Origin: Flavobacteriales bacterium
GTDB taxonomy: Bacteria > Bacteroidota > Bacteroidia > Flavobacteriales_D > Sanyastnellaceae
Length of the DNA stretch: 64,000 nt
Direction: 5' to 3'
NCBI GenBank assembly: GCA_019694805.1
Contig: JAIBBG010000001.1
Span: 1-64,000 of the forward strand
Position 1 is the first letter of the stretch; every line of letters begins with the position of its first letter. Both the position numbers and the translations under genes were made by a program. The notes beneath the pieces were generated by a model. It searched no databases, was not told where the DNA came from, and saw only the letters and a program-made list of their open reading frames with translations. Below, piece after piece: positions 1,930 to 14,867 of this stretch.

Positions 1930-2745
1930 ATGAGTGCATTTAGTCCAGAAACAGCGGCCCAGGCCTTGATCCCGAAAGAGCTACTCGGGCAGGCTTCATC
2001 ATTGCATTTTTCGTTGCATTTGGCAGCGGATGGAACAGAGGCTGCATTATCGGAAGCCGCAGGAGGTGAATTGCATTGGTCGCACCGATACCACATCGAA
2101 GCTGGAAGTCAGACAGACTTGACCACCACTTTGCGAGATCGCAATTGGAATGAGAAGATTTTTCGCAGGTGCACTGTTAGTTACGATGCCGAGGTCTTCA
2201 CACTGGTGCCATCCGGGTTTTTCTCAGCAGACAAAGCTGCATCACTGTTATCCTTCAGTACCGGCAAAACCTGCACACGGGTGAAGTACGCCGAGATGCC
2301 CGAATGGGATGCTGTACTCATCTGGGAAGAACCTGCGGAAGTCGGTGCTATACCTGCCCTATTTCCCAATGCGCGGTTGTTGCCATCGGCATATTTGGTG
2401 ATGAAGCATTGCAATACGGTGATTGACCGAAATTCGAACACCATCGCCATGATGAGATCAGGACATTTGTTGAATCTCTTTGTATTTCGCCAAGGCTTGC
2501 CAGTGATGTTGAATGCGCATCATGTGCATGATGATGAAGACATACTTTATTACGCCTCCCATGCTGCGATGACGCTGGGAATAGATTTCGAAAATTGTCA
2601 GCTCCACCTATACGATCATCAGGACGATGTTTCTCTGTTGAATTTGCTCAAGCATTACAACCGCCATGTAAACATCATGTTCCATGAAGAGCGCACAGAT
2701 GTTGCGACAGGATTCATTTCACATTTGCATGTCCTATGCGCATAA
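1930..2745 (+). CDS. DUF3822 family protein
   Basis: A 271-residue protein of unknown biochemical function. It fits DUF3822, a Bacteroidota-specific family with an actin-like/ASKHA-type fold prediction that is regularly encoded just upstream of rsmD. The C-terminal half carries the typical pattern of alternating strands (NTIAMMRSGHLLNLFVFRQG near residue 175, then LHLYDHQDD near 230). Its last ten bases overlap the start of rsmD, so the two are translated together. No signal peptide or membrane segment is visible, so it is probably cytoplasmic. The family call rests on context plus overall appearance. Confidence 0.75.
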   Translation: MSAFSPETAAQALIPKELLGQASSLHFSLHLAADGTEAALSEAAGGELHWSHRYHIEAGSQTDLTTTLRDRNWNEKIFRRCTVSYDAEVFTLVPSGFFSADKAASLLSFSTGKTCTRVKYAEMPEWDAVLIWEEPAEVGAIPALFPNARLLPSAYLVMKHCNTVIDRNSNTIAMMRSGHLLNLFVFRQGLPVMLNAHHVHDDEDILYYASHAAMTLGIDFENCQLHLYDHQDDVSLLNLLKHYNRHVNIMFHEERTDVATGFISHLHVLCA

Positions 2746-3290
2746 TTTCCGGCAGGTACAAAGGCAGAAGTCTGGTTGTTCCCAAAAACTTTGCAGGTCG
2801 ACCCACCACAGATTTTGCGCGTGAAGGTCTCTTCAATGTCTTGAATCACCTCATTGATTTTTCTGGGATACGTGTCCTCGACATGTTTGCCGGAACGGGA
2901 GCATTTGGTATCGAGTGTTTGTCGCGCGGTGCAGAAGGAGCAAAGTTTATTGAGATGTCGGGCTTGCATGCTAAATTCATTGCTGACAATATTCGTCAAT
3001 TTGACTTGAAGCAAGCTCAAGTAGTGAAAGGGGATGTCTTCCGGGTGATAACCACGTTACGTGAAAAGTACGATCTCATATTTGCCGATCCGCCCTATGA
3101 TCTGAATGGTTTGAATTCATTACCTGAACTTGTATTTCAATCAGAGTTGCTTCTAGAAAATGGGATTTTTGTTCTTGAACATGGTAGAGAATACGATTTC
3201 AGTGAACACCGTTTTTTCCTCCAACACAGAAAATACAGCAATGTGCACTTCAGTTTCTTTTCTGCTGAAGTGAGCGATGAGGAGGAATGA
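2736..3290 (+). CDS. rsmD: 16S rRNA (guanine(966)-N(2))-methyltransferase RsmD
   Basis: Methylates N2 of G966 in 16S rRNA on the 30S subunit, using S-adenosylmethionine. The 184-residue length is normal for RsmD. It begins MRIISGRYKGR, the usual family start, followed by RPTTDFAREGLFNVL, the SAM-binding LDMFAGTGAFGIE near residue 48, and the catalytic motif IV FADPPYD near residue 117. It overlaps the DUF3822 gene by ten bases. In many bacteria the next gene is coaD; here coaD is displaced by more than 5.6 kb (next copy at 8945), marking the intervening DNA as an insertion or expansion. Confidence 0.95.
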   Translation: MRIISGRYKGRSLVVPKNFAGRPTTDFAREGLFNVLNHLIDFSGIRVLDMFAGTGAFGIECLSRGAEGAKFIEMSGLHAKFIADNIRQFDLKQAQVVKGDVFRVITTLREKYDLIFADPPYDLNGLNSLPELVFQSELLLENGIFVLEHGREYDFSEHRFFLQHRKYSNVHFSFFSAEVSDEEE

Positions 3291-3459: not shown

Positions 3460-4602
3460 ATGAAACACATTCAACTATTCCTTTTAATCGGCTGTCTATT
3501 CATTTTAAATCTGAATCAATTGTTCTCGCAGACAACTACGGATTGGAAAATCAGTGGCAACAGCGTATCCGGCGATTCTAAACTTGGAACTAATAACGCA
3601 TACGATCTCATATTCGAAACATATAACGTTGAAAGAATGAGGTTGACTAGCGATGGTAAACTTGGAATAGGGATAGGAAATCCTCAAGCGGCACTTCACA
3701 TTATGGGCGATTTCAAACTAAATGGCACCATGAACATGTACACTTGGTATGATCCAAATGTCACAGGCCCACGTATTGTATTGACAGATCCCAATGGTAA
3801 TTTCGAAATTGCATCGCCAGGTAATTTGTACGAAATGCTTCATGCTAGTGATTGCTTCACCAATGAAAGCCAGCAATCTTTATCCGTTTGGGCGAATGGA
3901 AGTTCAAATGGACTCAACACACTATACACAGGAGCCAATTGTCCAACTTTAGTTGGCATTGGAACAGCAGATCCCATTTATGATCTACACGTGAACGGGA
4001 TAAGTTATTCAACACAAATGGTAGCAGGTGAACATGTATCAATACTATCCAATAGTTCTTCGTTGATGACTACCGATGCTTTCTTGATAGAAGATGAGTC
4101 CAATACAGATAATCCGATACTTCAGATCAACAACAAAGGGACATTTAAGTTGAATTACTTCGGAGAAGGCAATCCCTTTACAATCAAATCTGGCAATACA
4201 ACTGAAGATCTCTTTAGGATAAATTCCAACGGAAGCATGGATATGTTCTATACTGGGCCAACAGATGGATCTTTGATATTCAATGTTCATAGCATAGCAG
4301 AAAACGAAGGCATTTTTGCGATTACCAGTGACGGCAAAGTTTGGTGTCAGGGTTTGGAAGTCATGCATGCACCATTTTGGGGAGACTATGTATTTGAAAA
4401 GACATATCAACTGAAACCACTTAAAGAGGTTGAGCAATATGTGGTTGCCAATAAACACTTGCCAGATTTTCCATCAGCAGAAGAGTTAGAAGCCAATGGT
4501 GTTGACGTATATGAGATGTTGCGCTTGCTTACAGTGAAAGTAGAAGAGCTCACACTCTACACCATCGAATTGGAAAAACGTATTGAACAAGGTAACAAAT
4601 AA
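3460..4602 (+). CDS. Secreted tail-fibre-like surface protein, function unknown
   Basis: A 380-residue exported protein. Residues 1-24 form a signal peptide ending LFSQ. The middle is rich in short strand repeats of the LGIGIGNPQAALHIMG kind, found in trimeric tail-fibre/autotransporter-like stalks of Bacteroidota. The C-terminus (VFEKTYQLKPLKEVEQYV, NKHLPDFPSAEEL, then a short helix with leucine/valine heptads to residue 380) matches the end common to tail-fiber-domain proteins in this phylum, usually an intramolecular chaperone or trimerisation region. No catalytic Ser-Lys of a peptidase S74 domain could be assigned. It is the first gene of the AT-richer island after rsmD; the next gene begins one base after its stop. 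Confidence 0.7.
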   Translation: MKHIQLFLLIGCLFILNLNQLFSQTTTDWKISGNSVSGDSKLGTNNAYDLIFETYNVERMRLTSDGKLGIGIGNPQAALHIMGDFKLNGTMNMYTWYDPNVTGPRIVLTDPNGNFEIASPGNLYEMLHASDCFTNESQQSLSVWANGSSNGLNTLYTGANCPTLVGIGTADPIYDLHVNGISYSTQMVAGEHVSILSNSSSLMTTDAFLIEDESNTDNPILQINNKGTFKLNYFGEGNPFTIKSGNTTEDLFRINSNGSMDMFYTGPTDGSLIFNVHSIAENEGIFAITSDGKVWCQGLEVMHAPFWGDYVFEKTYQLKPLKEVEQYVVANKHLPDFPSAEELEANGVDVYEMLRLLTVKVEELTLYTIELEKRIEQGNK

Positions 4603-4603
4603 G

Positions 4604-7600
4604 ATGAACGCCATGAAAAAGCAATACCTTATTTCAATATTGGCCCTTTGTGCGTTCATATTGATTTCAAAAACCATACTGGCCCAAATGCCGCTTCCAT
4701 GTGTAGAATACACCAATGACAATGTAACAACACTATATGGTTTTCATGGGAGTAAGTCGGTAGGGTGCATGGAGATCAATATGGAAGAAACCCCCATCCA
4801 TATGAATGATGATGATGTGAGGGATTATCAAGTGCAGAATGCATCCATTAAAGCCGGTTATTCGTATGTACCTTCGGGGGACAATGGTCGTTTTAGTATC
4901 ACCCTTGGGGAGCGGGAAGAAATGGAAGGCGCATGGTTCGAGCCCATCAATTATTTTCCACAACTCTATGAAAAAATCGAATGGGGCCTAAAACTCCCCG
5001 CTGAAGTTGAACAAGCGATAGACAATTGGATCAGCAATGATCAATATGGAACGGAACATTATCCGACATTGAATCCATTTGATCCGGAGCAGATAGATGC
5101 GTACGCAACAATAGATTATTACCAAGATGGTAATTGGATACAAGAAACGATTTATGGATTCTTCTTTAAGGATTATGAGTGGATTTATGAATATGATGAG
5201 GTGCATTCACATAATCCGAACAATTTGCCGGATATGAATGATCCAGATAATTGGTTCCGCCAGGAATTACCAACTGAATACAGATTTCGGTTTCGATGGG
5301 CGGCCATCGCGGAATCCGAACATATCGTTTCACTTCATCTAAATGTTCCGAGCATGGGAGCATGGGAACTTTCACCATTTTCATTTCAATCGTTTTGGGG
5401 TGATCCAAAAAAAAGCTTCATAACTAAGACCTTCAACAATCGGTACTTTGCGACTTCAGATGGAGAAGTTTTTTTTCCTGTGGGCCAAAACCTATTCCCC
5501 CAAGACTGTCAATGTCTGAGAGAATTTCATCCAGATCGAATTGTAATCTTTGACAACCCCAATTGTGAAGAATGTTATCCTATGGGAGGTAACGACCCAT
5601 GTTGCGGCTTAGATGAATTTCCGAATGCCGAAGGACCTCCTTATGATTGGCGCGGATCATTTTGGAGACAGGAACGAACAACAATTGAATTGAGTACCGA
5701 ACATATTGCATCATATCTCAGGCAACAACTTCTATTGGAACAATTGGCCTCATCAGGAGCAAATAGCTACCGAACTATATTAACACCGATTTCATATGAT
5801 TTTGAATTCGAAAAACTCAATAATTACTATGATAGACAATTTATGGCCTGGGAATTAGATGAGTTAATACAAAAAACTCATGCACTTGGTCTGCGTGTAG
5901 AATTGAATATGATGTTGCACGGCCGAATCACGCATGGAGATAGAAATAGATGGGATTGGACAGATTTTGATAATCCTACTAGCCTGGATCCAATTATGAC
6001 AGGTTACTGTTATTATACGGAAAGAGCACTGACAAATTGTGACTCTGAGCCTGCCTCCTTTTTTAGAGAAACAGAGGCTAAGAAATTCTATAAACGCAAG
6101 TTGAGGTATTTTATAGCAAGATATGGTTATTCTCCTAACATTTTCCTCATTGATCTCATCAGCGAAATAAACAAAGTGGGACAACGAGATAGTGGATCAG
6201 AGTTTTTCTCACATCTTTTAGACGAGCCCGAAACATATGATGATTCCTACGAAGTCAGAAAGAACGTAGGTGATTGGCAGATAGAAATGGCAGAGTATAT
6301 AAAGAATCAGCTCGGACATAGCCGACATTTGATTGCTGCAGATTATGCAGGACAAGCAATGTGGACACCATATCAATCCTGGGATGGTTTACCAGGATTA
6401 TCACTTATTGAATCAACAATTGCATGCGAACACGAGTTATTCGATAAAGCATGGAGCGATGAAAGCATCGATGTCATGGCATATAGTAACTATCGGGTAG
6501 ATCTAGACACGTATCAACAATTGTGCGATCTAGAACATCGAGATTGTCAATGGAATGCGACGCATTGTAGTCCGAACAACGCTGAATATCCCGGATCTGC
6601 TCCATTCGAGTTGGTAAATAAACCTCTACATCATGCTGAAACGGGCGGATATCATTTTATGGATATTGACGACACATACTTCGAAAAAAATCTATGGGTG
6701 AATGGATTTTCTGGAAATGCAAGCTCAGGCTTTGAATGGGGGAAAGAATGGTATTCTGAGAGATGGCAAATTTTTGGCAGGGTTAAGGGTTTCTTCGAGA
6801 ATTATGTATTTTCTGATCCAGATACCAGAAATTTTGTAAACTGGCAGCCAAGGTATTCGATGTCGAACGAAGGCGAAAATGGATCAAATGTCACACATTG
6901 GTCAGAAGCTGTTTACCAATTCAACACCTCGCCGGATAATGAAAGCTGTATCGGCATTCTCATGAATAGAACCTGGAACTTGATTACCACATTTCCTGAG
7001 AATACACCTTTGGGTGGCAGTATGGAAGAAGGTGAGGTGTTGGAGTATTTCACACTGGTCAACAGTTTTGCTCCAATTGCATTTCCGTTTGTTGAAGTCA
7101 GCTACGAATTCGACGACGCGCCGACAATTGATGGCATGGGAATCAATAACAATTATGTCATTCTCTATATTGACCCTTCTGATTTCAGTTTGATCGGTTT
7201 GGGACTTGATAATTCTGGTGCATTTGGCAGGATCAAGTTGAAAGATTTTCCAACGCTTACATATGATAGGCCTTACGTTCTGTTTCAAATATTCAAAGTG
7301 AATCAAATCCTGTCTAATAATATACATGAAGAATACAAGTCTTTAATACAAAGTTTGGCAATGGAGGATACAGAGGATATTGTAAGTATTGAGCCAGATC
7401 TAAATAGATTGTCTATTTCTATTGCGCCCAACCCTGTGCATGACAACTTATATGTTAATTGTCCAAGTCCAATAGAATACGTCGAAATTCGCAATACTTT
7501 TGGGCAAATTGTGCTAACCACAAACAATATTCAACAAGAAATTTTCCTCAAAAATTTATCCGCTGGTGTTTATTTTTTGAAAGTCCAGTTGGTAAACCAC

Positions 7601-7633
7601 ACGGCTAAAATTTTTCAGATTATAAAACAATGA
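4604..7633 (+). CDS. Large T9SS-exported protein with cellulase-like (clan GH-A type) barrel
   Basis: Predicted cell-surface or released glycosidase-like protein of about 1009 residues. The frame is open from a TTG at 4583, but ATG 4604 (or 4613, MKKQYL) directly before the signal peptide is a better start. A beta-rich N-terminal part is followed near residue 290 by VFFPVGQNLFP, the entry motif of DUF4038/GH5-like barrels. Then come WELDELIQKTHALGLRVEL (about 425), RYGYSPNIFLIDLISEIN (about 510) with the glutamate of the acid/base strand, and HHAETGGYH (about 675) as possible nucleophile strand. The last 75 residues (IAPNPVHDNLYV to IFQIIKQ) are a T9SS type A sorting domain. The stretch LKDFPTLTYDRPYVLFQI near residue 875 recurs in the chimeric gene at 9402. 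The next gene overlaps its stop codon. Substrate unknown. Confidence 0.75.
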   Translation: MNAMKKQYLISILALCAFILISKTILAQMPLPCVEYTNDNVTTLYGFHGSKSVGCMEINMEETPIHMNDDDVRDYQVQNASIKAGYSYVPSGDNGRFSITLGEREEMEGAWFEPINYFPQLYEKIEWGLKLPAEVEQAIDNWISNDQYGTEHYPTLNPFDPEQIDAYATIDYYQDGNWIQETIYGFFFKDYEWIYEYDEVHSHNPNNLPDMNDPDNWFRQELPTEYRFRFRWAAIAESEHIVSLHLNVPSMGAWELSPFSFQSFWGDPKKSFITKTFNNRYFATSDGEVFFPVGQNLFPQDCQCLREFHPDRIVIFDNPNCEECYPMGGNDPCCGLDEFPNAEGPPYDWRGSFWRQERTTIELSTEHIASYLRQQLLLEQLASSGANSYRTILTPISYDFEFEKLNNYYDRQFMAWELDELIQKTHALGLRVELNMMLHGRITHGDRNRWDWTDFDNPTSLDPIMTGYCYYTERALTNCDSEPASFFRETEAKKFYKRKLRYFIARYGYSPNIFLIDLISEINKVGQRDSGSEFFSHLLDEPETYDDSYEVRKNVGDWQIEMAEYIKNQLGHSRHLIAADYAGQAMWTPYQSWDGLPGLSLIESTIACEHELFDKAWSDESIDVMAYSNYRVDLDTYQQLCDLEHRDCQWNATHCSPNNAEYPGSAPFELVNKPLHHAETGGYHFMDIDDTYFEKNLWVNGFSGNASSGFEWGKEWYSERWQIFGRVKGFFENYVFSDPDTRNFVNWQPRYSMSNEGENGSNVTHWSEAVYQFNTSPDNESCIGILMNRTWNLITTFPENTPLGGSMEEGEVLEYFTLVNSFAPIAFPFVEVSYEFDDAPTIDGMGINNNYVILYIDPSDFSLIGLGLDNSGAFGRIKLKDFPTLTYDRPYVLFQIFKVNQILSNNIHEEYKSLIQSLAMEDTEDIVSIEPDLNRLSISIAPNPVHDNLYVNCPSPIEYVEIRNTFGQIVLTTNNIQQEIFLKNLSAGVYFLKVQLVNHTAKIFQIIKQ

Positions 7634-8094
7634 AAATTGGTAGAACATTATTAATTTGCTTGTCATTTGCTATTTTTTTTTGCCGATGCGATTATCCTGA
7701 TAATTGGCAAGATGATGATACAAATTGGTATTTTACATGGGTGAAGACTATTTATTATGACTCAGAAGCGGATTCCACGATAATTATTGAACCAACAGAT
7801 TGGAGTGAAACCTATCATTTCACCTTGAAATTTCAGAATAACGATCGCTATGCACGATTTTATAAAGGTGATGAATTACTCCTCGAGAGCGAATTCAAGG
7901 ACACCCATATACTTTATGAACATGAGATGATTTGCGACGAATATGATTTTTGTTATGATTTCGAAGATAAGTTTACTATTTGCACTGCGGATGGTGACAG
8001 TAACGGAATAAGATTAATGGGTTTGCCTTGGATAGACGGTAAATTCTATCTAGAGTGTAAAACGTACAGTTATTTCAGAGTTGAAGTCAATTGA
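7630..8094 (+). CDS. Small lipoprotein, family copy 1 (four-cysteine type)
   Basis: Unrecognised 154-residue lipoprotein. A short hydrophobic leader ends IFFCRC, with a cysteine suitable for lipidation near residue 18. The mature part is beta-rich with IYYDSEADSTIIIEPTDWSETYHF, a cysteine pattern C-x5-C-x9-C plus a fourth cysteine about 24 residues later, and a late LPWIDGKF motif. The gene at 10208 has the same length, the same cysteine spacing and the same motifs (PTSFEETY, FPYLDGDF) but is otherwise strongly diverged. The ATG overlaps the stop of the T9SS protein (ATGA), and the barrel gene follows 3 bp later, so the three form one unit. Probably outer-membrane anchored; function unknown. 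Confidence 0.7.
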   Translation: MKIGRTLLICLSFAIFFCRCDYPDNWQDDDTNWYFTWVKTIYYDSEADSTIIIEPTDWSETYHFTLKFQNNDRYARFYKGDELLLESEFKDTHILYEHEMICDEYDFCYDFEDKFTICTADGDSNGIRLMGLPWIDGKFYLECKTYSYFRVEVN

Positions 8095-8097
8095 TCC

Positions 8098-8739
8098 ATG
8101 ATAAAACATGAAAGTACCATGTGGATAAAGAAATCATCATGTATGCTTATTCAATTTCAGTGTAAGTTCATCCTTTGCTTGATTTTGTTGGCTGGATCTT
8201 TTTCTGACAAGATGAATGCCCAATTGATAAGCGCCCACTTGCGTTTTTCCAACATGATCACAACTGAACAAAGCACTTACCACACCAAATATGGAATGGG
8301 TGGTGGTGGCGGTTTGCGTGTCAAACCTCTTACGTGGTGTTATATCCAAGGTGGTGTAGCTTATCACAAAATGTACAGCGATGATGCAAGACTGGATCAA
8401 ATGCGCATCATCACATGGGATTGGCAATTGGGTTTCATCCCCTACCAGAAAATTCCCATTCATCTTACTATTGGCACATTGCAACACAGATACCGATTTA
8501 CTACAAACCCCATAGAAGATTTTGGATTGATTTTTCTCCCCGGACTTGACATGACAAGACGATGGGATGGTTGGAATATTGGTATTGCCTATCCCATCAA
8601 AAAATGGTTGGAAGTTGGTCTGTCTTATGAGAAAGAACCGTTCTTTCTCTTTCACCATCCCATGACTGCAGATTATTTGAAGATCGCGGTGGGGGTGAAT
8701 TCTGGCTGCTTCTCTCAAGAAAACAGCAAAGATCATTAG
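8098..8739 (+). CDS. Small outer-membrane beta-barrel protein, family copy 1
   Basis: Unrecognised 213-residue exported protein. An N-terminal hydrophobic segment (FILCLILLAGSF) ends near MNAQ at about residue 42. The rest alternates short strands in the manner of an 8-stranded PorT/OmpW-like barrel: GLRVKPLTWCYIQGGVAYH, TWDWQLGFIPYQKIPIH, GTLQHRYRF, WDGWNIGIAYPIKKWLEV, LKIAVGVNS. The copy at 10725 shares these blocks. ATG codons at 8119 and 8143 are possible later starts. The 3' 147 bp belong to a direct repeat whose second copy at 12531 is only a fragment. Role unknown; always paired with a small lipoprotein here. Confidence 0.65.
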   Translation: MIKHESTMWIKKSSCMLIQFQCKFILCLILLAGSFSDKMNAQLISAHLRFSNMITTEQSTYHTKYGMGGGGGLRVKPLTWCYIQGGVAYHKMYSDDARLDQMRIITWDWQLGFIPYQKIPIHLTIGTLQHRYRFTTNPIEDFGLIFLPGLDMTRRWDGWNIGIAYPIKKWLEVGLSYEKEPFFLFHHPMTADYLKIAVGVNSGCFSQENSKDH

Positions 8740-8932
8740 GATAAATGGAATATCATGTAGCCATGACACGGTTGCTACTTTTGATCGACGGCCCGTAGAC
8801 AAAGAGTTGATTCCAAAAAAAATCCATGTTGCATTCTTCCATTGGCATTTGATGATCGAAAAAACCAATAGATGCATGTTACCCGTCATGCGGATATTGC
8901 ACCAACTTGATGCATAGTACGATCACTGGTTA

Positions 8933-8940
8933 TATGTTTG
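8933..8940 (+). promoter_or_regulatory. Putative promoter of coaD copy 1: TATGTTTG with upstream TTG
   Basis: TATGTTTG fits TAnnTTTG exactly; a TTG at 8907-8909 lies 23 bp upstream, the far end of the usual spacing. The coaD ATG follows only 4 nt later, which would give a leaderless or nearly leaderless mRNA. The same motif is kept in copy 2. Confidence 0.5.
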
Positions 8941-8944
8941 TGAC

Positions 8945-9409
8945 ATGAAACGCATTGCAGTATTCCCGGGCTCATTCGATCCAGTAACACGTGGCCACGA
9001 AAACATCGTTCGCAGGGGGGCATCACTTTTCGATGAAGTGATTGTGGCTATTGGAGTAAACACTACCAAACAATCGATGTTTCCCATCGAACAACGCAAA
9101 AAATGGTTGGTGGATACGTTTGCCGATCTGTCACATGTGAGGGTAGAAACTTTCGAAGGACTCACTGCTGATTTCTGTAAAAAAAATGGGGCAACATATT
9201 TGCTACGCGGACTGAGAAACGGCGGCGATTTTGAGTATGAACGCACGATCGCCCACATGAATAGCGCCATGTGGCCCGAACTGGAAACCATTCTCGTTTT
9301 CACTGATCCGGAATTTGCTTCGGTGCATAGCACCGTGATCAGGGAGATCATTAAAAATAAAGGCGACGTTTCTCAGTTTGTACCAACGAAGGTGAAGATA
9401 TATGCATAA
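8945..9409 (+). CDS. coaD: Phosphopantetheine adenylyltransferase, copy 1
   Basis: Transfers AMP from ATP to 4'-phosphopantetheine to give dephospho-CoA, the penultimate step of CoA synthesis in the cytoplasm. The 154-residue length is normal. Family signatures are FPGSFDPVTRGHENI (T/HxGH nucleotidyltransferase motif, residues 7-21), GLRNGGDFEYE (about 90) and the C-terminal VHSTVIREI (ISSTxVRE-like, about 127). The protein is identical to the copy at 12884. Its stop overlaps the next start by 8 bp. Two intact copies of an essential housekeeping gene 4 kb apart are unusual. Confidence 0.95.
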   Translation: MKRIAVFPGSFDPVTRGHENIVRRGASLFDEVIVAIGVNTTKQSMFPIEQRKKWLVDTFADLSHVRVETFEGLTADFCKKNGATYLLRGLRNGGDFEYERTIAHMNSAMWPELETILVFTDPEFASVHSTVIREIIKNKGDVSQFVPTKVKIYA

Positions 9410-10217
9410 ATTCTTTCTTTTTCTGCTGTGTCTGCTGGGTGAACTTTTCACACTGGCTCAGCCTGTGGTGATAGAAGGTCTGGCTAAAGGATATGAAGGC
9501 AGAAAAATTGTCGCATTTCAGATAGAAGATTATATCTCTGAAAAACGAAGTGTTATCGCTTCTTCTGATATTGCTGAAAACGGATTGTTTTCGCTGGAAT
9601 TCAAACCAACAACTACAGGCGCTATTATCCTGAGCATTTCGCGAACCGAAGCAACCATCTATGCAAGTCCGGGCGCGCACTACTCTATCATTTTTCCAAT
9701 CGTATCAGCAGGTACGGTGAAAAAGTTCGATAAAACTTCCGTTGAAGTATCCTTTGAAGGTTTGGATACCCATGATACCAATGCCGGAGGAAAGCTAAAA
9801 TTGAAGGATTTTCCTACACTCATTTGGGAACGGCCTTATGTACTTTTCAAAATTGAATATAATGGGGATTGCTTATTTAATTCACCCATTGCATTCGAAG
9901 AATTACAAAAAGACAAAAATGAGGCAACTGCAACAAGTTTGGAGCAACCCGATGGTACCACTCAAGCTTTAGTTACCTCCCTTGATGATCAAAATGAACT
10001 TTGTTGTATACATCCTAATCCAACAACAGGTAAAATATTATTATCTTGCCAAAACAATCCTACGATTGTCCGATTATTAAATTCGATGGGTGAAAATGTT
10101 GAGATAAACGCATTAGGCAATACAATGGACTTAACCGAACTTGCTGATGGCATTTATATTATCGAATTTAGCGTACAAGGAAAATCAAATAAAATGCGAA
10201 TTGTAAAATGCGAATAG
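9402..10217 (+). CDS. Chimeric secreted protein: thioredoxin-gene N-terminus fused to T9SS glycosidase C-terminus
   Basis: A 271-residue in-frame fusion. Residues 1-127 (signal peptide ending TLAQ, then a DUF4369-like beta domain) are almost identical to the start of the 508-residue protein at 13341. At 9785/9786 the sequence switches to LKLKDFPTLIWERPYVLFKI and then a T9SS type A sorting domain (CIHPNPTTGKILL to KMRIVKCE), homologous to the end of the 1009-residue protein at 4604. Both export and sorting signals remain, so the product could be exported, but its original enzymatic barrel and thioredoxin domain are both absent. It most likely arose at a duplication joint. The next lipoprotein gene overlaps its stop by 10 bp. 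Confidence 0.8.
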   Translation: MHKFFLFLLCLLGELFTLAQPVVIEGLAKGYEGRKIVAFQIEDYISEKRSVIASSDIAENGLFSLEFKPTTTGAIILSISRTEATIYASPGAHYSIIFPIVSAGTVKKFDKTSVEVSFEGLDTHDTNAGGKLKLKDFPTLIWERPYVLFKIEYNGDCLFNSPIAFEELQKDKNEATATSLEQPDGTTQALVTSLDDQNELCCIHPNPTTGKILLSCQNNPTIVRLLNSMGENVEINALGNTMDLTELADGIYIIEFSVQGKSNKMRIVKCE

Positions 10218-10672
10218 CACTGATGACATCATCCTTTGCGATTGTCATAGCCTTATTGTATTCCTGCTCAAAAGATCCCGAAAGGCTTGTTGGAACCGTT
10301 CGATACGACTGGGTTGAAACACAGATTTATTATGCAAACGAGGATACAGTTGTGACGATAAGACCCACATCTTTTGAAGAGACCTACAGTATTGTTTACG
10401 AAACATATGAGAACCATACCTACGGGTATATATATCAAGGCGAAGAACTGAAAATGGAGGGTCTTGTTGTCGATTTTGTTACAGCGTCAGGAAATGAGAC
10501 ATCATGTTTATATGAAGAGGATTGCAGGGTTTGGCAAGATAATTTTCAACTGTGTCAAAGACGGTACAGTGGAAATATTTATGTGGTTTATCAATTTCCT
10601 TATTTAGATGGAGATTTCGGCAATTGTCACTCATCCAGTTTGTTCGAGGTTACATACCGTTTTCATTTTTAA
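10208..10672 (+). CDS. Small lipoprotein, family copy 2 (four-cysteine type)
   Basis: A 154-residue lipoprotein paralogous to 7630-8094. The leader ends LLYSCS, with lipidated cysteine near residue 20. It keeps IYYANEDTVVTIRPTSFEETY, the C-x5-C-x9-C spacing with a fourth cysteine about 23 residues later, and FPYLDGDF. Otherwise the sequence is heavily diverged. It overlaps the chimeric T9SS gene by 10 bp and is followed by a barrel gene, reproducing the order seen at 4604-8739. No function is recognised. Confidence 0.7.
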   Translation: MRIALMTSSFAIVIALLYSCSKDPERLVGTVRYDWVETQIYYANEDTVVTIRPTSFEETYSIVYETYENHTYGYIYQGEELKMEGLVVDFVTASGNETSCLYEEDCRVWQDNFQLCQRRYSGNIYVVYQFPYLDGDFGNCHSSSLFEVTYRFHF

Positions 10673-10724
10673 TCTAGCATGAAATGGATAAATGATTTTT
10701 TTCATATTCTGCCGTTATTTAATC

Positions 10725-11294
10725 ATGAAGAAAATGTCCAAATTAATGTACCTGTTGTTTAGTACTCTTATGTGGAAATTTTCTGCGGGTCAGTTAATCA
10801 CATTTCACGCTGGCCCATCCATGATGATCACGACAGAACAAACCACCTATAGCTCCAAACTTGCATTGGGAGGTGGTTTCAGTGCTAGGGTGAAGCCATT
10901 GGATTGGTTATATATACAAGGGGGATTGCATTTGCATCAGTTTGTGATTTTTGATGAACGAATCAAAAACTATAAAGTAACTACATGGGATTGGCAAGTA
11001 GGTTTTATTCCATATCAAAAAATACCAATCCATGTTTTTATAGGTACGCTGCAACACCGCTACCGTTTCAGATCAAAATCCATCAGTGGTTACGGTATGG
11101 TGCTCGTCCCTGAAATCGATCAAACGCGCATTTGGGATGGTTGGAATATTGGTATTGCCTATCCCATCAAAAAATGGTTGGAAGTCTCAGTGATTTATGA
11201 AAAGGAACCGTTTTATCTATTCAAAGACCCACACACCTCCAATTACTTGAGGTTTGGCGTGAGTTTGAATAGTTCACTTTTGTCAATAGAATAA
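10725..11294 (+). CDS. Small outer-membrane beta-barrel protein, family copy 2
   Basis: About 190 residues from ATG 10725 (the frame is open from 10692, but MKKMSKLMYLLF is the natural signal-peptide start). The signal peptide ends near FSAGQ. It shares with 8098-8739 the blocks MITTEQTTY, RVKPLDWLYIQGG, TWDWQVGFIPYQKIPIH, GTLQHRYRF, WDGWNIGIAYPIKKWLEV and YEKEPFYLF; loops between them differ. Predicted 8-stranded outer-membrane barrel. A 40-bp stretch around 11141-11183 is nearly identical in DNA to 8572-8614, a possible site for recombination between paralogues. Confidence 0.65.
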   Translation: MKKMSKLMYLLFSTLMWKFSAGQLITFHAGPSMMITTEQTTYSSKLALGGGFSARVKPLDWLYIQGGLHLHQFVIFDERIKNYKVTTWDWQVGFIPYQKIPIHVFIGTLQHRYRFRSKSISGYGMVLVPEIDQTRIWDGWNIGIAYPIKKWLEVSVIYEKEPFYLFKDPHTSNYLRFGVSLNSSLLSIE

Positions 11295-11477
11295 AGAACT
11301 AAACCTTAGGATGAGTGATTAATAAATTGTATCTGCTGTACTTTATATCTGATCGAACAAATCAGTAAAAAAACTGACGAAATCAACACATATTCTCATG
11401 ACACGTTGATCTGAATACGCATATTTTTGATTTTGATGAACTATCATACAACTAAACCAAATTGAAATGGTAACGCC

Positions 11478-11933
11478 ATGAAAGTGATCACCATTACATT
11501 GCTCACTATATGTTTGATCAGTTGCGAAAGAAAAATTGAACCAGAGCCCAATTTTTTGCCTTTTTAATTGTATGCTCAAACCTGGGAGTGGACATACACT
11601 GTGGACTATTTTTCTGAACAAGATACTCTTCGAAAAAAATCTGACACAACATTACGATACACCATCGTTAAAGAAGCAAGAGTTAAAGCAACCGGTATCA
11701 CTTATTTATTTCAAGTGAATGGTCAAACTGTAGCCATCAGGCATGCAGATAGAACAATATCTGATGGACTCGGTAAGACCATTGTTCTTAGCACCAACGA
11801 TGATCACGCATCATTGGACTTAAATTTTTCAAGTTTTGATGAATTCAATTCTAGCACATTCTTCGTCACTGGATTCCCATACCCAGGAATTGATGGTCAA
11901 TTGGTAAAAAACTATTTTAAAGAAGTCCAATGA
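11478..11933 (+). pseudogene. Small lipoprotein, family copy 3, interrupted by an in-frame TAA
   Basis: Read through, this is a 151-residue frame beginning MKVITITLLTICLISCERK, a lipoprotein leader with cysteine at residue 16. Codon 30 is TAA (11565-11567), after which the same frame continues LYAQTWEWTYTVDYF and ends SFDEFNSSTFFVTGFPYPGIDGQ. Length, leader, position before a barrel gene and the FPYPGIDG motif mark it as a third family member; it lacks the four-cysteine pattern of copies 1 and 2. Translation from a TTG at 11568 would give a 121-residue protein without an export signal. Its end overlaps the start of the next gene. Confidence 0.65.
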
Positions 11934-12502
11934 GAATCTGCATCACAGTATTGACATTCTTACTGGTTCTGAAATGGTGCAGCCCTGCTCAGTCTCAATT
12001 CAATTTGAATTTAGCACCATCATGCGGCTTGAGTTTGACAAAAAAAAACACCTTCCCTTCATCAATAGCTTATGGTTCGTTCGTTTCGCTTTCAATTCAA
12101 ATCAAACAGTATGTACCGGTTGTAGGAGGAAGTCTTTTATATCTCACACCCAAAAGTGAGTTTCTCAAGCAGCAACAGTTGAAACACATTTACGCCGGAC
12201 TGAAAATTATTCTTGATCCTGAAAAGGATAAATTTCATCTTGGAGCATATGCACTGATGTCGCAGAACATGATTACTCCAGACAACCGCTCTCTACCCGA
12301 TGGGTTTCAATTACCTGGTGTTACCTATGCGAATAACTTTGGTTATCAATTATCAACTTATTATTATTTCAAACAATGGTTAGGTTGCAGCCTCACATAT
12401 ATAAGGTTATGTGCTCATTCATATGAAGCACAGAATTATCAGTCTTTATTAACTTTTAGTATGCAGATGCGCTTGAAAGTCGACATAAAACGTAACAAAT
12501 GA
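11930..12502 (+). CDS. Small outer-membrane beta-barrel protein, divergent copy 3
   Basis: A 190-residue exported protein with signal peptide (TVLTFLLVLKWCSPAQSQ) and alternating strands ending FSMQMRLKV. It occupies the barrel position after the interrupted lipoprotein gene, with ATGA overlap. Detailed similarity to the other two barrels is weak: it shares the size, a hydrophobic pattern and YYYFKQWLGCSLTYI in place of AYPIKKWLEV. Role unknown. Confidence 0.55.
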   Translation: MRICITVLTFLLVLKWCSPAQSQFNLNLAPSCGLSLTKKNTFPSSIAYGSFVSLSIQIKQYVPVVGGSLLYLTPKSEFLKQQQLKHIYAGLKIILDPEKDKFHLGAYALMSQNMITPDNRSLPDGFQLPGVTYANNFGYQLSTYYYFKQWLGCSLTYIRLCAHSYEAQNYQSLLTFSMQMRLKVDIKRNK

Positions 12503-12530
12503 AATATCAATCAACCTTCGATTGACCTTT

Positions 12531-12677
12531 CCCATCAAAAAATGGTTGGAAGTTGGTCTGTCTTATGAGAAAGAACAGTTCTATCTCTTTCACCATCCCA
12601 TGACTGCAGATTATTTGAAGATTGCGGTGGGGGTGAATTCTAGCTTATTTTCTCAAGAAAACAGCAAAGATCATTAG
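12531..12677 (+). pseudogene. 3' fragment of a barrel gene (copy-1 type)
   Basis: Forty-eight codons reading PIKKWLEVGLSYEKEQFYLF and onward to a TAG at 12675-12677, the same end as the barrel at 8098-8739 with a few changed residues. No start codon or upstream part is present. It forms the left edge of direct repeat copy 2 and shows that repeat copy 2 once carried, or was copied from, a full barrel gene before coaD. Confidence 0.85.
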
Positions 12678-12871
12678 GATAAATGGAATATCATGTAGCC
12701 ATGACACGGTTGCTACTTTTGATCGACGGCCCGTAGACAAAGAGTTGATTCCAAAAAAAAATCCATGTTGCATTTTTCCACTGGAATTTGATGATCGAAA
12801 AACCCAATAGATGCATGTTACCCGTCATGCGGATATTGCACCAACTTGATGCATAGTACGATCACAGGTTA

Positions 12872-12879
12872 TATGTTTG
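12872..12879 (+). promoter_or_regulatory. Putative promoter of coaD copy 2 (TATGTTTG)
   Basis: Same TAnnTTTG octamer as 8933-8940, 4 nt before the coaD start. The upstream TTG is also kept. Confidence 0.5.
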
Positions 12880-12883
12880 TGAC

Positions 12884-13348
12884 ATGAAACGCATTGCAGT
12901 ATTCCCGGGCTCATTCGATCCAGTAACACGTGGCCACGAAAACATCGTTCGCAGGGGGGCATCACTTTTCGATGAAGTGATTGTGGCTATTGGAGTAAAC
13001 ACTACCAAACAATCGATGTTTCCCATCGAACAACGCAAAAAATGGTTGGTGGATACGTTTGCCGATCTGTCACATGTGAGGGTAGAAACTTTCGAAGGAC
13101 TCACTGCTGATTTCTGTAAAAAAAATGGGGCAACATATTTGCTACGCGGACTGAGAAACGGCGGCGATTTTGAGTATGAACGCACGATCGCCCACATGAA
13201 TAGCGCCATGTGGCCCGAACTGGAAACCATTCTCGTTTTCACTGATCCGGAATTTGCTTCGGTGCATAGCACCGTGATCAGGGAGATCATTAAAAATAAA
13301 GGCGACGTTTCTCAGTTTGTACCAACGAAGGTGAAGATATATGCATAA
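12884..13348 (+). CDS. coaD: Phosphopantetheine adenylyltransferase, copy 2
   Basis: Identical in protein (and, by eye, in DNA) to 8945-9409: same 154 residues, TRGH nucleotidyltransferase motif and C-terminal STVIREI. It is followed, with 8-bp overlap, by the intact thioredoxin-fold gene, so this is probably the original locus. Gene dosage of CoaD would be doubled if both promoters are active. Confidence 0.95.
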   Translation: MKRIAVFPGSFDPVTRGHENIVRRGASLFDEVIVAIGVNTTKQSMFPIEQRKKWLVDTFADLSHVRVETFEGLTADFCKKNGATYLLRGLRNGGDFEYERTIAHMNSAMWPELETILVFTDPEFASVHSTVIREIIKNKGDVSQFVPTKVKIYA

Positions 13349-14867
13349 ATTCTTTCTTTTTCTGCTGTGTCTGCTGGGTGAACTTTTCACACTGGCTCAG
13401 CCTGTGGTGATAGAAGGTCTGGCTAAAGGATATGAAGGCAGAAAAATTGTCGCATTTCAGATAGAAGATTATATCTCTGAAAAACGAAGTGTTATCGCTT
13501 CTTCTGATATTGCTGAAAACGGATTGTTTTCGCTGGAATTCAAACCAACAACTACAGGCGCTATTATCCTGAGCATTTCGCGAACCGAAGCAACCATCTA
13601 TGCAAGTCCGGGCGCGCACTACTCTATCATCTTTCCAATCGTATCAGCAGGTACGGTGAAAAAATTCGATAAAACTTCCGTTGAAGTATCCTTTGAAGGT
13701 TTGGATACCCATGATATCAATGCCCTGATCAGGTCATTCAATGCTGACTACGCAGCGTTTATTGCAGAACATCATTACGACTTTGCCGCACAGGAATACC
13801 ATGGTTCTGATGCATGGTTAAAATCACTCGGCGAGAAGTCGAACAAGACTGATCTCACCAAACGAGCGGGAAATCAGGATAGTTCTGCAGTAGTTACTCA
13901 GGTAGTACCTTTTCGCGAAGTAGTGACCGCATTTGTAGCTGCCACACATCAAAAGTATCAGGCAGATTATTCCAATGACTTCTTTCAGGATTATGTGAAG
14001 TATTCACTTGGTGAATTAGAATTGCTGTCGGGTATGAATAGAATTGCATTTTATCATGACTATTTCATGTCGCAGAAAATTCAGCCAGCACATCCTTCAT
14101 ATATGAGCTGCTTCCATGCGTATTACCATCATTTTCTCACACAACGAAAAAAGGAACTACAGAGCGCAATCATCAAAGCAGTGAATCAGGAAAGAGACCC
14201 TATGAAAATTGTTTCATTGTTCGAAGGCGATTCAACCTGCCTTGGCACCGAAGTGCGAACACTGGCGGTGATCAAAGGATTGCATGATATCTATTACGAC
14301 AAAACTTTCACGAAATATTCTGTAGAAAAAACACTCATGAATTTTCCTGCAGCACAAACTGAATTGAAAACCATTTCGCGCCATGTGCTGGATGAATTGA
14401 GACAATGTCAAGAAGGATGGATTCTACAAGATTTCACCTTACCAGATGAAGCAGGTGACAAATGGCATTTAGCAGAACATCTTGGTAGTCCAGTTTACAT
14501 GGTCTTTTTCGCTTCATGGAGTTCAAGCGCTTTGAAAGAATTACAGATCATGCAAAATCTGTATGAGAAATATGGCAAACAGATTTTGTTTGTTGCCATT
14601 TGTATGGATGATGATTACCAGGCTTTCAAAGAATACATTGTAGAACACAAGGATCAAAAATTCACCTTTCTATATGGCGGCGGCGCTCCTATGTTGAGTT
14701 ATGATTGTGAAGTAAGAAGCATACCGCACGCACTTATGTTGGATTCAGAAGGCAAAGTCATGTATGCTTTCACCCGCAAACCAAGCGAAGGCATTCAACT
14801 TGACCTCGAAAAAATTGTGGCAGTGATGAAGCAGTCTACGCAAGGGCCGAAGACGTGGAAACAATAG
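13341..14867 (+). CDS. TlpA-like thioredoxin-fold protein lacking the CxxC motif
   Basis: A 508-residue exported protein: signal peptide to TLAQ (residue 19), DUF4369-like beta domain (about 22-125), a helical middle region (about 130-360), then a C-terminal TlpA/AhpC-type thioredoxin fold (WILQDFTLPDEAGDKWHL, VYMVFFASWSSSALKEL, IPHALMLDSEGKVMYAF). Where TlpA/ResA proteins have WCxxC, this has W393-S-S-S-A, so neither redox cysteine is present. The cis-proline loop (SIPHA) is kept. Catalysis of disulfide exchange is therefore unlikely; a binding or structural role is possible. It overlaps coaD copy 2 by 8 bp. Confidence 0.8.
   Translation: MHKFFLFLLCLLGELFTLAQPVVIEGLAKGYEGRKIVAFQIEDYISEKRSVIASSDIAENGLFSLEFKPTTTGAIILSISRTEATIYASPGAHYSIIFPIVSAGTVKKFDKTSVEVSFEGLDTHDINALIRSFNADYAAFIAEHHYDFAAQEYHGSDAWLKSLGEKSNKTDLTKRAGNQDSSAVVTQVVPFREVVTAFVAATHQKYQADYSNDFFQDYVKYSLGELELLSGMNRIAFYHDYFMSQKIQPAHPSYMSCFHAYYHHFLTQRKKELQSAIIKAVNQERDPMKIVSLFEGDSTCLGTEVRTLAVIKGLHDIYYDKTFTKYSVEKTLMNFPAAQTELKTISRHVLDELRQCQEGWILQDFTLPDEAGDKWHLAEHLGSPVYMVFFASWSSSALKELQIMQNLYEKYGKQILFVAICMDDDYQAFKEYIVEHKDQKFTFLYGGGAPMLSYDCEVRSIPHALMLDSEGKVMYAFTRKPSEGIQLDLEKIVAVMKQSTQGPKTWKQ

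What the first reader, a model, noticed from the sequence alone, without database searches (positions are those of the whole stretch)
3460..14867. Accessory island between rsmD and coaD with serial lipoprotein/beta-barrel cassettes
Seen: after rsmD come a tail-fibre-like protein, a T9SS glycosidase-like protein, and then lipoprotein + small outer-membrane barrel in tandem three times (7630-8739, 10208-11294, 11478-12502), in decreasing completeness. Lipoproteins 1 and 2 share length (154) and an exact C-x5-C-x9-C spacing with a fourth cysteine, yet most other residues differ. Known: rsmD and coaD are neighbours in many bacteria, so this is an insertion or local expansion. Inference: a T9SS enzyme, a surface lipoprotein and an OM barrel form one undescribed surface module that duplicates and diversifies quickly, as expected for receptors, adhesins or self/non-self surface factors.
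Basis: partly seen in the sequence, partly recalled or inferred. Interest (0 to 1): 0.75.

Follow-up and report, generated by a model that had tools for sequence, protein, structure and literature searches.

The report
Surface enzyme with swappable tail cassettes
Next to two housekeeping genes sits a transplanted set of genes for a secreted enzyme and small outer-membrane partner proteins, whose tail-plus-partner block has been copied (here together with an essential gene), a layout that recurs in related bacteria and resembles known toxin-and-immunity gene arrays.

Summary
The island is real but misread in one respect: coaD is present twice. A 1.2-kb direct repeat (8584-9785, 12521-13724; 98.5%, 764 bp identical) carries a barrel 3' end, coaD and the 5' end of a redoxin gene; the first redoxin copy is fused in frame to a T9SS sorting domain. 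In 20 of 20 relatives examined rsmD and coaD are adjacent, so this is an insertion. Enzyme C-terminal fragments followed by a partner recur as orphan cassettes; in one genome such orphans start with a near-identical head and then diverge, as in Rhs loci. I read it as a T9SS counterpart of polymorphic C-terminus/partner systems, with cognate, perhaps immunity-like, partners. Against: partner families often occur alone, one covariation test failed, and the window's own orphan has no near-identical head. Partner function is inferred.

The parts
2736..3290 (+). rsmD, left border of the island
   Evidence: PF03602 E 3.3e-39
3460..4602 (+). fibre-like gene (380 aa), head of the module
   Evidence: PHROG tail fibre 1.5e-11; homologues stand next to the enzyme in G012, G078 and others
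4613..7633 (+). main gene: GH-like protein with T9SS type A C-terminal domain (ORF from TTG 4583; ATG 4613 is the likelier start)
   Evidence: TIGR04183 34.3 bits; PDB DUF5060-domain protein E 7.4e-6 over 46 aa; E528 and E686 invariant among 3 relatives
7630..8094 (+). LP1, lipoprotein partner, start overlaps the enzyme stop by 4 bp
   Evidence: rank 1 of 339 entries with an HMM of cassette lipoproteins from other genomes, E 0.0027
8098..8739 (+). barrel1, small putative OM barrel
   Evidence: 56% to barrel2; no relative in the other 113 family genomes searched; AF2 model poor, pLDDT 43
8584..9785 (.). direct repeat R, copy 1
   Evidence: 98.5% to 12521-13724; 764 bp exact (8928-9691)
8945..9409 (+). 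coaD copy 1
   Evidence: identical to copy 2; G000 is the only one of 60 genomes searched (itself included) with two matches
9402..10217 (+). chimeric ORF: redoxin N-terminus (signal peptide judged by eye) fused in frame to an enzyme-type C-terminus with CTD (orphan CT')
   Evidence: 86% to redoxin over 155 aa and 30% to enzyme CT over 158 aa; TIGR04183 27.3 bits
10208..10672 (+). LP2
   Evidence: 30% to LP1; rank 7 of 339 entries, E 0.36
10692..11294 (+). barrel2
   Evidence: 56% to barrel1; dN/dS 0.15 with saturated dS
11478..11933 (+). LP3, lipoprotein gene with one in-frame stop at codon 30 (pseudogene, or restarted at TTG 11568)
   Evidence: rank 5 of 339 entries, E 0.2 (entered twice)
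11930..12502 (+). barrel3, not detectably related in sequence to barrel1/2
12510..12677 (+). 3' remnant of a barrel1-type gene
   Evidence: 83% over 54 aa
12521..13724 (.). direct repeat R, copy 2
   Evidence: mismatches listed
12884..13348 (+). coaD copy 2
13341..14867 (+). complete redoxin-domain gene, right border
   Evidence: PF08534 8.7e-9; a match to this gene found beside coaD in 19 of 20 relatives

Best explanation
A horizontally acquired surface module (fibre-like protein, GH-like enzyme exported by the T9SS, small OM lipoprotein and/or barrel partners) inserted between rsmD and coaD. Its working unit is a cassette: the enzyme's C-terminal region including the T9SS sorting domain (CT), plus the partner gene(s) directly behind it. 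New CT-partner combinations arise by duplication and homologous recombination, and displaced or spare cassettes stay downstream, mostly without export signals, as orphan CT-partner pairs, as in Rhs loci. In this window an old tandem duplication of [enzyme CT - LP - barrel - coaD - redoxin 5' end] left CT'-LP2-barrel2 (and later LP3-barrel3) behind a second coaD. The joint fused CT' to the redoxin signal peptide, so this orphan can probably be exported; coaD and its surroundings were since homogenised by gene conversion. Function: the CT is a polymorphic tip and the OM partner is its cognate, most likely protecting the producer and its kin from the surface enzyme or recognising self. Shown: the architecture, its recurrence, insertion and site polymorphism, orphan CT-partner units, homologous heads in one genome. 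Inferred: the duplication history, gene conversion, cognate pairing, protection, export of CT'.
For: By a fixed rule a small secreted or lipid-modified gene follows fibre-linked or CTD-bearing enzymes within 20 bp in 22 of 32 non-edge cases (13 of the 22 with a 4-bp overlap); one of these (L233) is a hydrolase-like gene, leaving 21. For other homologues 3 of 35 pass, all three one hydrolase-like gene; one more (L144) has barrels by eye. Same [CT-LP-barrel] repeat in G012 and G641 (L163). Searches with barrel and LP families found main-barrel-barrel-CT-barrel-CT-barrel (L298), CT-barrel units in a row (L299) and a CT-LP pair without a main gene nearby (L284). In G630 three orphan CTs have 95-99% nucleotide identity to the main gene over orphan codons 41-80; in two it falls to about 61% in the next block, in the third it stays mosaic (70-93%) to codon 243, then 44%. 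CT and adjacent-barrel identity correlate over 16 cassettes (Mantel r 0.67, 0 of 5000; 0.49, 2 of 3000 without a recent duplicate). Acquisition: the site is empty in 2 genus-mates of G078; low GC in three modules; dS 0.07-0.14 in fibre/enzyme versus 0.43-0.48 in flanks between two congeneric genomes. Partner-only arrays, six LPs in G018.
Against: Enzyme CTs are not more alike between loci that share a partner family once core identity is allowed for (-2.0 points; 1970 of 2000 permutations reach it). Partner swaps within genomes reach the Mantel value in 29 of 5000 (all cassettes), but 135 and 97 of 3000 when either copy of the recent duplicate is dropped. Partner families occur without an enzyme fragment ahead of them in 28 of 35 extra loci; in two more (L277, L279) only the generic CTD matches. 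The window's own CT' has no near-identical head (52% nt), so recent switching is not shown here. Two fragments have no visible partner (L139; L165 at a contig edge). Short orphans (77-104 aa) hold little beyond the CTD. The fibre-enzyme pair occurs without partners in L202, L205, L206. No toxin domain was found.
Confidence: 0.5

Rival explanations
1. Anchor or shuttle: the LP/barrel is the dedicated OM docking partner of the enzyme's sorting domain, as SprF-like barrels are for type B CTDs; cassettes diversify where the enzyme is placed, not whom it harms.
For: The smallest orphan units are little more than CTD plus partner (77-104 aa). Type B CTD/shuttle pairs are cognate and often encoded adjacently (PMC12618676: abstract, introduction and discussion read; PMC9143113: abstract). 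CT-partner identity correlates.
Against: The CTD is type A (TIGR04183), which that paper says is handled by PorV; partners match no PorP/SprF model; partner-only arrays have no substrate beside them; lipoproteins and barrels replace each other.
Confidence: 0.25
2. Neutral by-product: CT fragments and extra partners are leftovers of tandem duplication without a role, as coaD was dragged along here.
For: Fragments mostly lack signal peptides and vary in length; LP3 has a stop; L297 looks decayed.
Against: Long intact ORFs at 35-46% identity to the own main gene (L141f 538 aa, L163f 342 aa), start-stop overlaps kept behind many fragments, the same layout in several genera, near-identical heads.
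Confidence: 0.2
3. Glycan-use locus: enzyme, glycan-binding lipoprotein and small porin cooperate in nutrient uptake; copy number follows substrate range.
For: GH-like hints; LP plus OM barrel.
Against: No SusC/SusD-type hit among the window's island proteins; orphan CT-partner cassettes are not explained; LP and barrel replace each other.
Confidence: 0.12
4. The coaD duplication is an assembly chimera of two strain haplotypes.
For: 106-contig assembly of unknown method; 764-bp exact repeat; no other of 60 genomes has two coaD.
Against: Copies differ at 21 aligned columns (five of them at the very left border) outside the exact core; the contig is 530 kb; both new joints (redoxin'-CT', barrel3-remnant) must exist in some cell, and the fusion is in frame.
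Confidence: 0.12

Closest known systems
Rhs loci with orphan CT/immunity pairs (Salmonella; PMC3967940, passages read)
   Same: Full-length main gene, variable C-terminus, partner directly downstream, orphan C-terminal fragments plus partner behind it, orphans usually lacking export/start signals, and (in G630) a near-identical stretch between main and orphan as recombination substrate.
   Different: No Rhs repeats found; export by T9SS with the sorting domain inside the swapped CT; partners are OM lipoproteins/barrels rather than (recalled) cytoplasmic immunity proteins; no known toxin domain.
Type B CTD substrates with SprF/PorP-like shuttles (PMC12618676, PMC9143113)
   Same: T9SS substrate with an OM barrel gene directly downstream; cognate pairing.
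   Different: Type A CTD; partners not PorP/SprF by HMM; lipoproteins can replace barrels; orphan CTD-partner cassettes.
TANFOR polymorphic toxins of Bacteroidetes (PMC7073777, outline and passages)
   Same: Proposed T9SS-linked polymorphic proteins with downstream immunity genes in Bacteroidetes.
   Different: Different N-terminal domain and a DNase CT; in that paper's main text the words orphan, lipoprotein and beta-barrel do not occur.

Membership tests
T9SS type A substrate | C-terminal TIGR04183 domain over cut-off | tested here: met
   Enzyme 34.3 bits, chimera 27.3 bits, cut-off 23
T9SS type A substrate | Host has a T9SS | tested here: met
   SprA TIGR04189 in G000, 1862 and 525 bits in one open frame; 0 of 14 control genomes; other components not searched
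Type B CTD / SprF pair | Type B CTD | tested here: not met
   No type B model among hits up to E 10
Type B CTD / SprF pair | Partner is PorP/SprF-like | tested here: not met
   No such Pfam hit for the window barrels (E up to 10) or the 21 barrels of A6 (E up to 0.1)
Rhs/CDI-type polymorphic loci (layout) | Orphan C-terminal fragments followed by a partner gene | tested here: met
   G012, L140, L141, L146, L163, L284, L297, L298, L299, L306 and the window; not in L139, and L165 is cut by a contig edge
Rhs/CDI-type polymorphic loci (layout) | Homologous head then divergent C-terminus in orphans | tested here: inconclusive
   Met in G630 (3 of 3 orphans, one mosaic), weaker in L163 (84% nt in the first block), not met for the window's CT', L093f1, L140f or L141f
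Rhs family proper | Rhs/YD repeats | tested here: not met
   No such Pfam/NCBIfam hit
Toxin-immunity system | CT is toxic and partner neutralises it | not testable with these tools
   No toxin domain found; needs bench work
BSAP toxins | MACPF domain in the effector | tested here: not met
   No Pfam hit to it in the enzyme; LP1 to BSAP-5i only E 0.075, 13.1 bits against a cut-off of 150
Glycoside hydrolase (DUF5060-type) | Family HMM over cut-off and catalytic Glu pair | tested here: inconclusive
   No DUF5060 hit in the window enzyme; sub-threshold in 4 of 7 relatives' proteins; PDB hit 7.4e-6; two Glu invariant, their catalytic role recalled from GH-A enzymes
Lipocalin_4 lipoproteins | PF13648 over cut-off | tested here: not met
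   1 of 21 members at E 0.005
TANFOR polymorphic toxins | N-terminal TANFOR domain | tested here: inconclusive
   No hit; whether those libraries hold the model was not checked

The most novel reading that the evidence does not exclude
A T9SS-dependent polymorphic surface system of Flavobacteriales: a fibre-plus-enzyme complex carries an exchangeable C-terminus whose cognate outer-membrane lipoprotein/barrel decides kin from foe. Orphan CT-partner cassettes are an archive for switching, and partner-only arrays are acquired immunity against neighbours.
Probability: 0.35. Interest if true: 0.9.

Novelty: new variant of a known kind. Interest (0 to 1): 0.72.

Why it matters
It would extend the main-gene/orphan-cassette logic of Rhs loci to the type IX secretion system, where the swapped part includes the export signal and the partner sits in the outer membrane, and would link a type A sorting domain to a dedicated partner, which the papers read here report for type B. 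The loci are easy to find and several are in long contigs, so cognate pairing and switching are directly testable.

Tried and rejected
Positive selection: not found. Covariation of enzyme CT with partner family over 253 pairs of 23 loci: negative. Structure route: AF2 models of barrel1 (pLDDT 43) and LP1 (54) were too poor; a Foldseek search with the LP1 model gave nothing at E <= 0.001. Window barrels could not be linked to other cassette barrels by HMM or hhalign. Mature window-LP profile versus LP family by hhalign was weak (13%; six unrelated controls <= 0.1%, two further 'controls' turned out to be family members, whose last step crashed). Direct repeats at the insertion borders: none of 10+ bases in the window, none of 8+ (direct or inverted) in G078. 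Genome-contig scan with the barrel alignment found nothing. Phage source: of the nine proteins scanned only the fibre has a convincing PHROG hit. Papers: the listings (one search held none; one search returned no relevant one on coaD) show no description of this module; only open-licence papers are searched.
Full report
What is in the window. The interval after rsmD reads: fibre-like gene 3460-4602, GH-like enzyme with a T9SS type A sorting domain 4613-7633, LP1 7630-8094, barrel1 8098-8739, coaD 8945-9409, a chimeric ORF 9402-10217, LP2 10208-10672, barrel2 10692-11294, LP3 11478-11933, barrel3 11930-12502, a barrel remnant 12510-12677, a second coaD 12884-13348, and a complete redoxin gene 13341-14867. 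The two coaD genes lie in a 1.2-kb direct repeat (98.5%), with 764 bp identical and the mismatches outside that core. BLAST counts 16 substitutions in 1204 columns; all lie in the 440 or so outside the core, so I infer recent gene conversion around coaD (no formal test run). The chimera is 86% identical to the redoxin over 155 residues and 30% to the enzyme's C-terminus over 158: I infer a tandem duplication whose right end lay in the redoxin gene and whose left end lay in the enzyme's C-terminus. LP and barrel copies are old (30% and 56% identity). LP3 has a single in-frame stop.

It is an insertion. Twenty coaD regions of relatives were fetched; in 20 of 20 the rsmD and coaD matches lie -7 to 73 bp apart, and a redoxin-gene match is found beside coaD in 19. 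Of 60 genomes searched, G000 included, 59 have a coaD match and only G000 has two. GC is 0.391 and 0.367 in the two inserts against 0.446 and 0.434 in the flanks. The barrel profile finds only G000 among 114 genomes of the family, the LP profile G000 plus one marginal hit at E 0.009; in a phylum sample the barrel profile finds 2 of 395, the second at E 0.002 (at most seven candidates scored per genome).

The module recurs. Of 15 enzyme loci read in the same family (L084-L088, L090-L099), two have a fibre gene ahead: G012 and G078. In G012 the order is fibre, enzyme, LPa, LPb, barrel, orphan CTD fragment, LPa', LPb', barrel', and a further enzyme remnant: the architecture of the window with partners that BLAST does not link to the window's. 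In G078 it is fibre, enzyme, LP, LP between pyk and an ompA-like gene; in both genus-mates examined, G018 and G079, those flanking genes are adjacent. A search of 399 genomes of the order found the enzyme family in 115 (two candidates scored per genome); many are shorter homologues without fibre or CTD. I fetched 40 regions in two batches (one repeat, one overlap) and tabulated them with G012 and G078, then 80 named loci, of which 51 were tabulated and those already seen skipped. The order is given as Flavobacteriales from record titles. By a fixed rule (next gene within -100 to +20 bp, 90-345 aa, hydrophobic N-terminus, no CTD) fibre-linked or CTD-bearing enzymes have a follower in 22 of 32 non-edge cases, 13 of these 22 with a 4-bp overlap; L233's follower looks like a hydrolase, leaving 21 lipoproteins or barrel-like proteins. 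Other homologues pass in 3 of 35, and those 3 encode one hydrolase-like protein. By eye three more module cases (L132, L142, L150) and one of the 35 (L144) have partners that the rule missed. L202, L205 and L206 (titles: Bacteroidales or Bacteroidetes bacterium) have the fibre-enzyme pair and no partner.

The partners. Twenty-one lipoproteins from eight genomes form one BLAST-linked family. An HMM of 16 of them ranks LP1 first, LP3 fifth and LP2 seventh among 339 entries (LP3 entered twice), so the window's lipoproteins are probably remote members; single E-values are weak (0.0027, 0.2, 0.36). A separate barrel-like family links 13 proteins. Two of 21 barrel-like proteins match OMP_b-brl (best 9.7e-8); for the rest the barrel is inferred. 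The window's barrels link to none of them.

Orphan C-terminal cassettes. Enzyme C-terminal fragments followed by a partner occur in G012, L140, L141, L146 and L163; L139 has a fragment with no partner behind it and in L165 the contig ends. To test linkage without starting from the enzyme I searched with the LP and barrel families: 44 of 399 and 14 of 389 genomes. I fetched 35 loci chosen because they lay outside the known modules. Five have enzyme genes or fragments matching beyond the CTD in the array (L284, L297, L298, L299, L306); two have only a CTD match ahead (L277, another T9SS protein; L279, a 77-aa CTD ORF overlapping the LP start); 28 have neither, though some of these have CTD-bearing ORFs elsewhere in the stretch (L288, L289, L295, L300, L307). 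L298 is fibre, enzyme, barrel, barrel, CT, barrel, CT, barrel, barrel, barrel; L299 alternates barrel and CT three times up to the contig end. Partner-only arrays include six LPs in G018, where the enzyme candidates scored are of the shorter type.

Recombination. Two loci of genome G630 share 4.3 kb at 97%. Its three orphan CTs share 95-99% of nucleotides with the main gene over codons 41-80 of the orphan. In L146f and L298f2 identity falls to about 61% in the next block; in L298f1 it stays mosaic (70-93%) up to codon 243 and then falls to 44%. This head-then-divergence pattern is like that described for an orphan rhs fragment (PMC3967940, passages). L163f shows a weaker version; G012's, L140's, L141's and the window's do not. 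Between congeneric genomes G696 and G576 synonymous divergence is 0.07-0.14 in fibre and enzyme against 0.43-0.48 in two flanking genes, so the core probably moved between them after they split; the second LP has dS 0.32-0.48 between them and 73-77% identity. Some orphans are closer to another genome's main CT than to their own (L140f 59% to L139 against 48%; L141f and L165f likewise), others closest to their own (L146f, L163f, L139f, G012's, the window's).

Do CT and partner belong together? Across 16 barrel cassettes the identity of the last 115 residues of the CT correlates with that of the adjacent barrel: r 0.67, 0 of 5000 permutations, within-genome swaps 29 of 5000. Dropping one G630 main: r 0.49, 2 or 3 of 3000, within-genome 135 or 97 of 3000; dropping three cassettes: 0.37, 24 and 55 of 3000; dropping L298m and L299f2: 0.60, 0 and 22 of 3000. 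Against this, over 23 main genes a shared partner family does not raise CT identity beyond core identity. I take cognate pairing as likely, not shown.

Mechanism. The enzyme has two glutamates invariant among relatives and a weak DUF5060-protein match, so a surface glycoside hydrolase is plausible. G000 has SprA. I favour a polymorphic CT with a cognate OM partner that protects or identifies kin: orphan CT-partner pairs, homologous heads and partner-only arrays all fit effector-immunity systems. The anchor/shuttle alternative rests on the type B CTD/SprF precedent (PMC12618676, PMC9143113) and on the CTD being part of the cassettes. A neutral origin explains the dragged-along coaD best and may explain the short fragments.

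coaD. Both copies are identical; either could supply the enzyme, and recombination between the repeats would delete the second cassette set (inference). coaD of G000 is 79% and 76% identical to G036 and G017 of another genus but 59-67% to seven genus-mates, a pattern absent from rsmD and the helicase. It may have come with foreign DNA; not resolved.

Noticed in passing
window 8945-9409 and 12884-13348: coaD is closer to other genera (G036 79%, G017 76%) than to seven genus-mates (59-67%), unlike rsmD and the helicase: possible replacement by foreign coaD.
   Followed up: partly
L147 and L157: Genomes placed in different genera (G046, G759) share an identical 844-residue enzyme stretch: contamination or very recent transfer.
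   Followed up: no
L282:3010-6488: Six tandem lipoproteins of the cassette family in G018 with no enzyme in the stretch.
   Followed up: partly
L142:3860-6409: Enzyme ORF begins with a fibre-like N-terminus (32% over 40 aa, E 0.001), perhaps a fibre-enzyme fusion.
   Followed up: partly
L300:7242-11737: Run of CTD-bearing ORFs opposite a barrel/lipoprotein array in G625.
   Followed up: no
L277:6430-10062: Another kind of T9SS protein (only its CTD matches the enzyme) stands ahead of three cassette-family lipoproteins in G679.
   Followed up: no
G000:C54:13562-15634: A second, shorter enzyme homologue elsewhere in the genome.
   Followed up: partly
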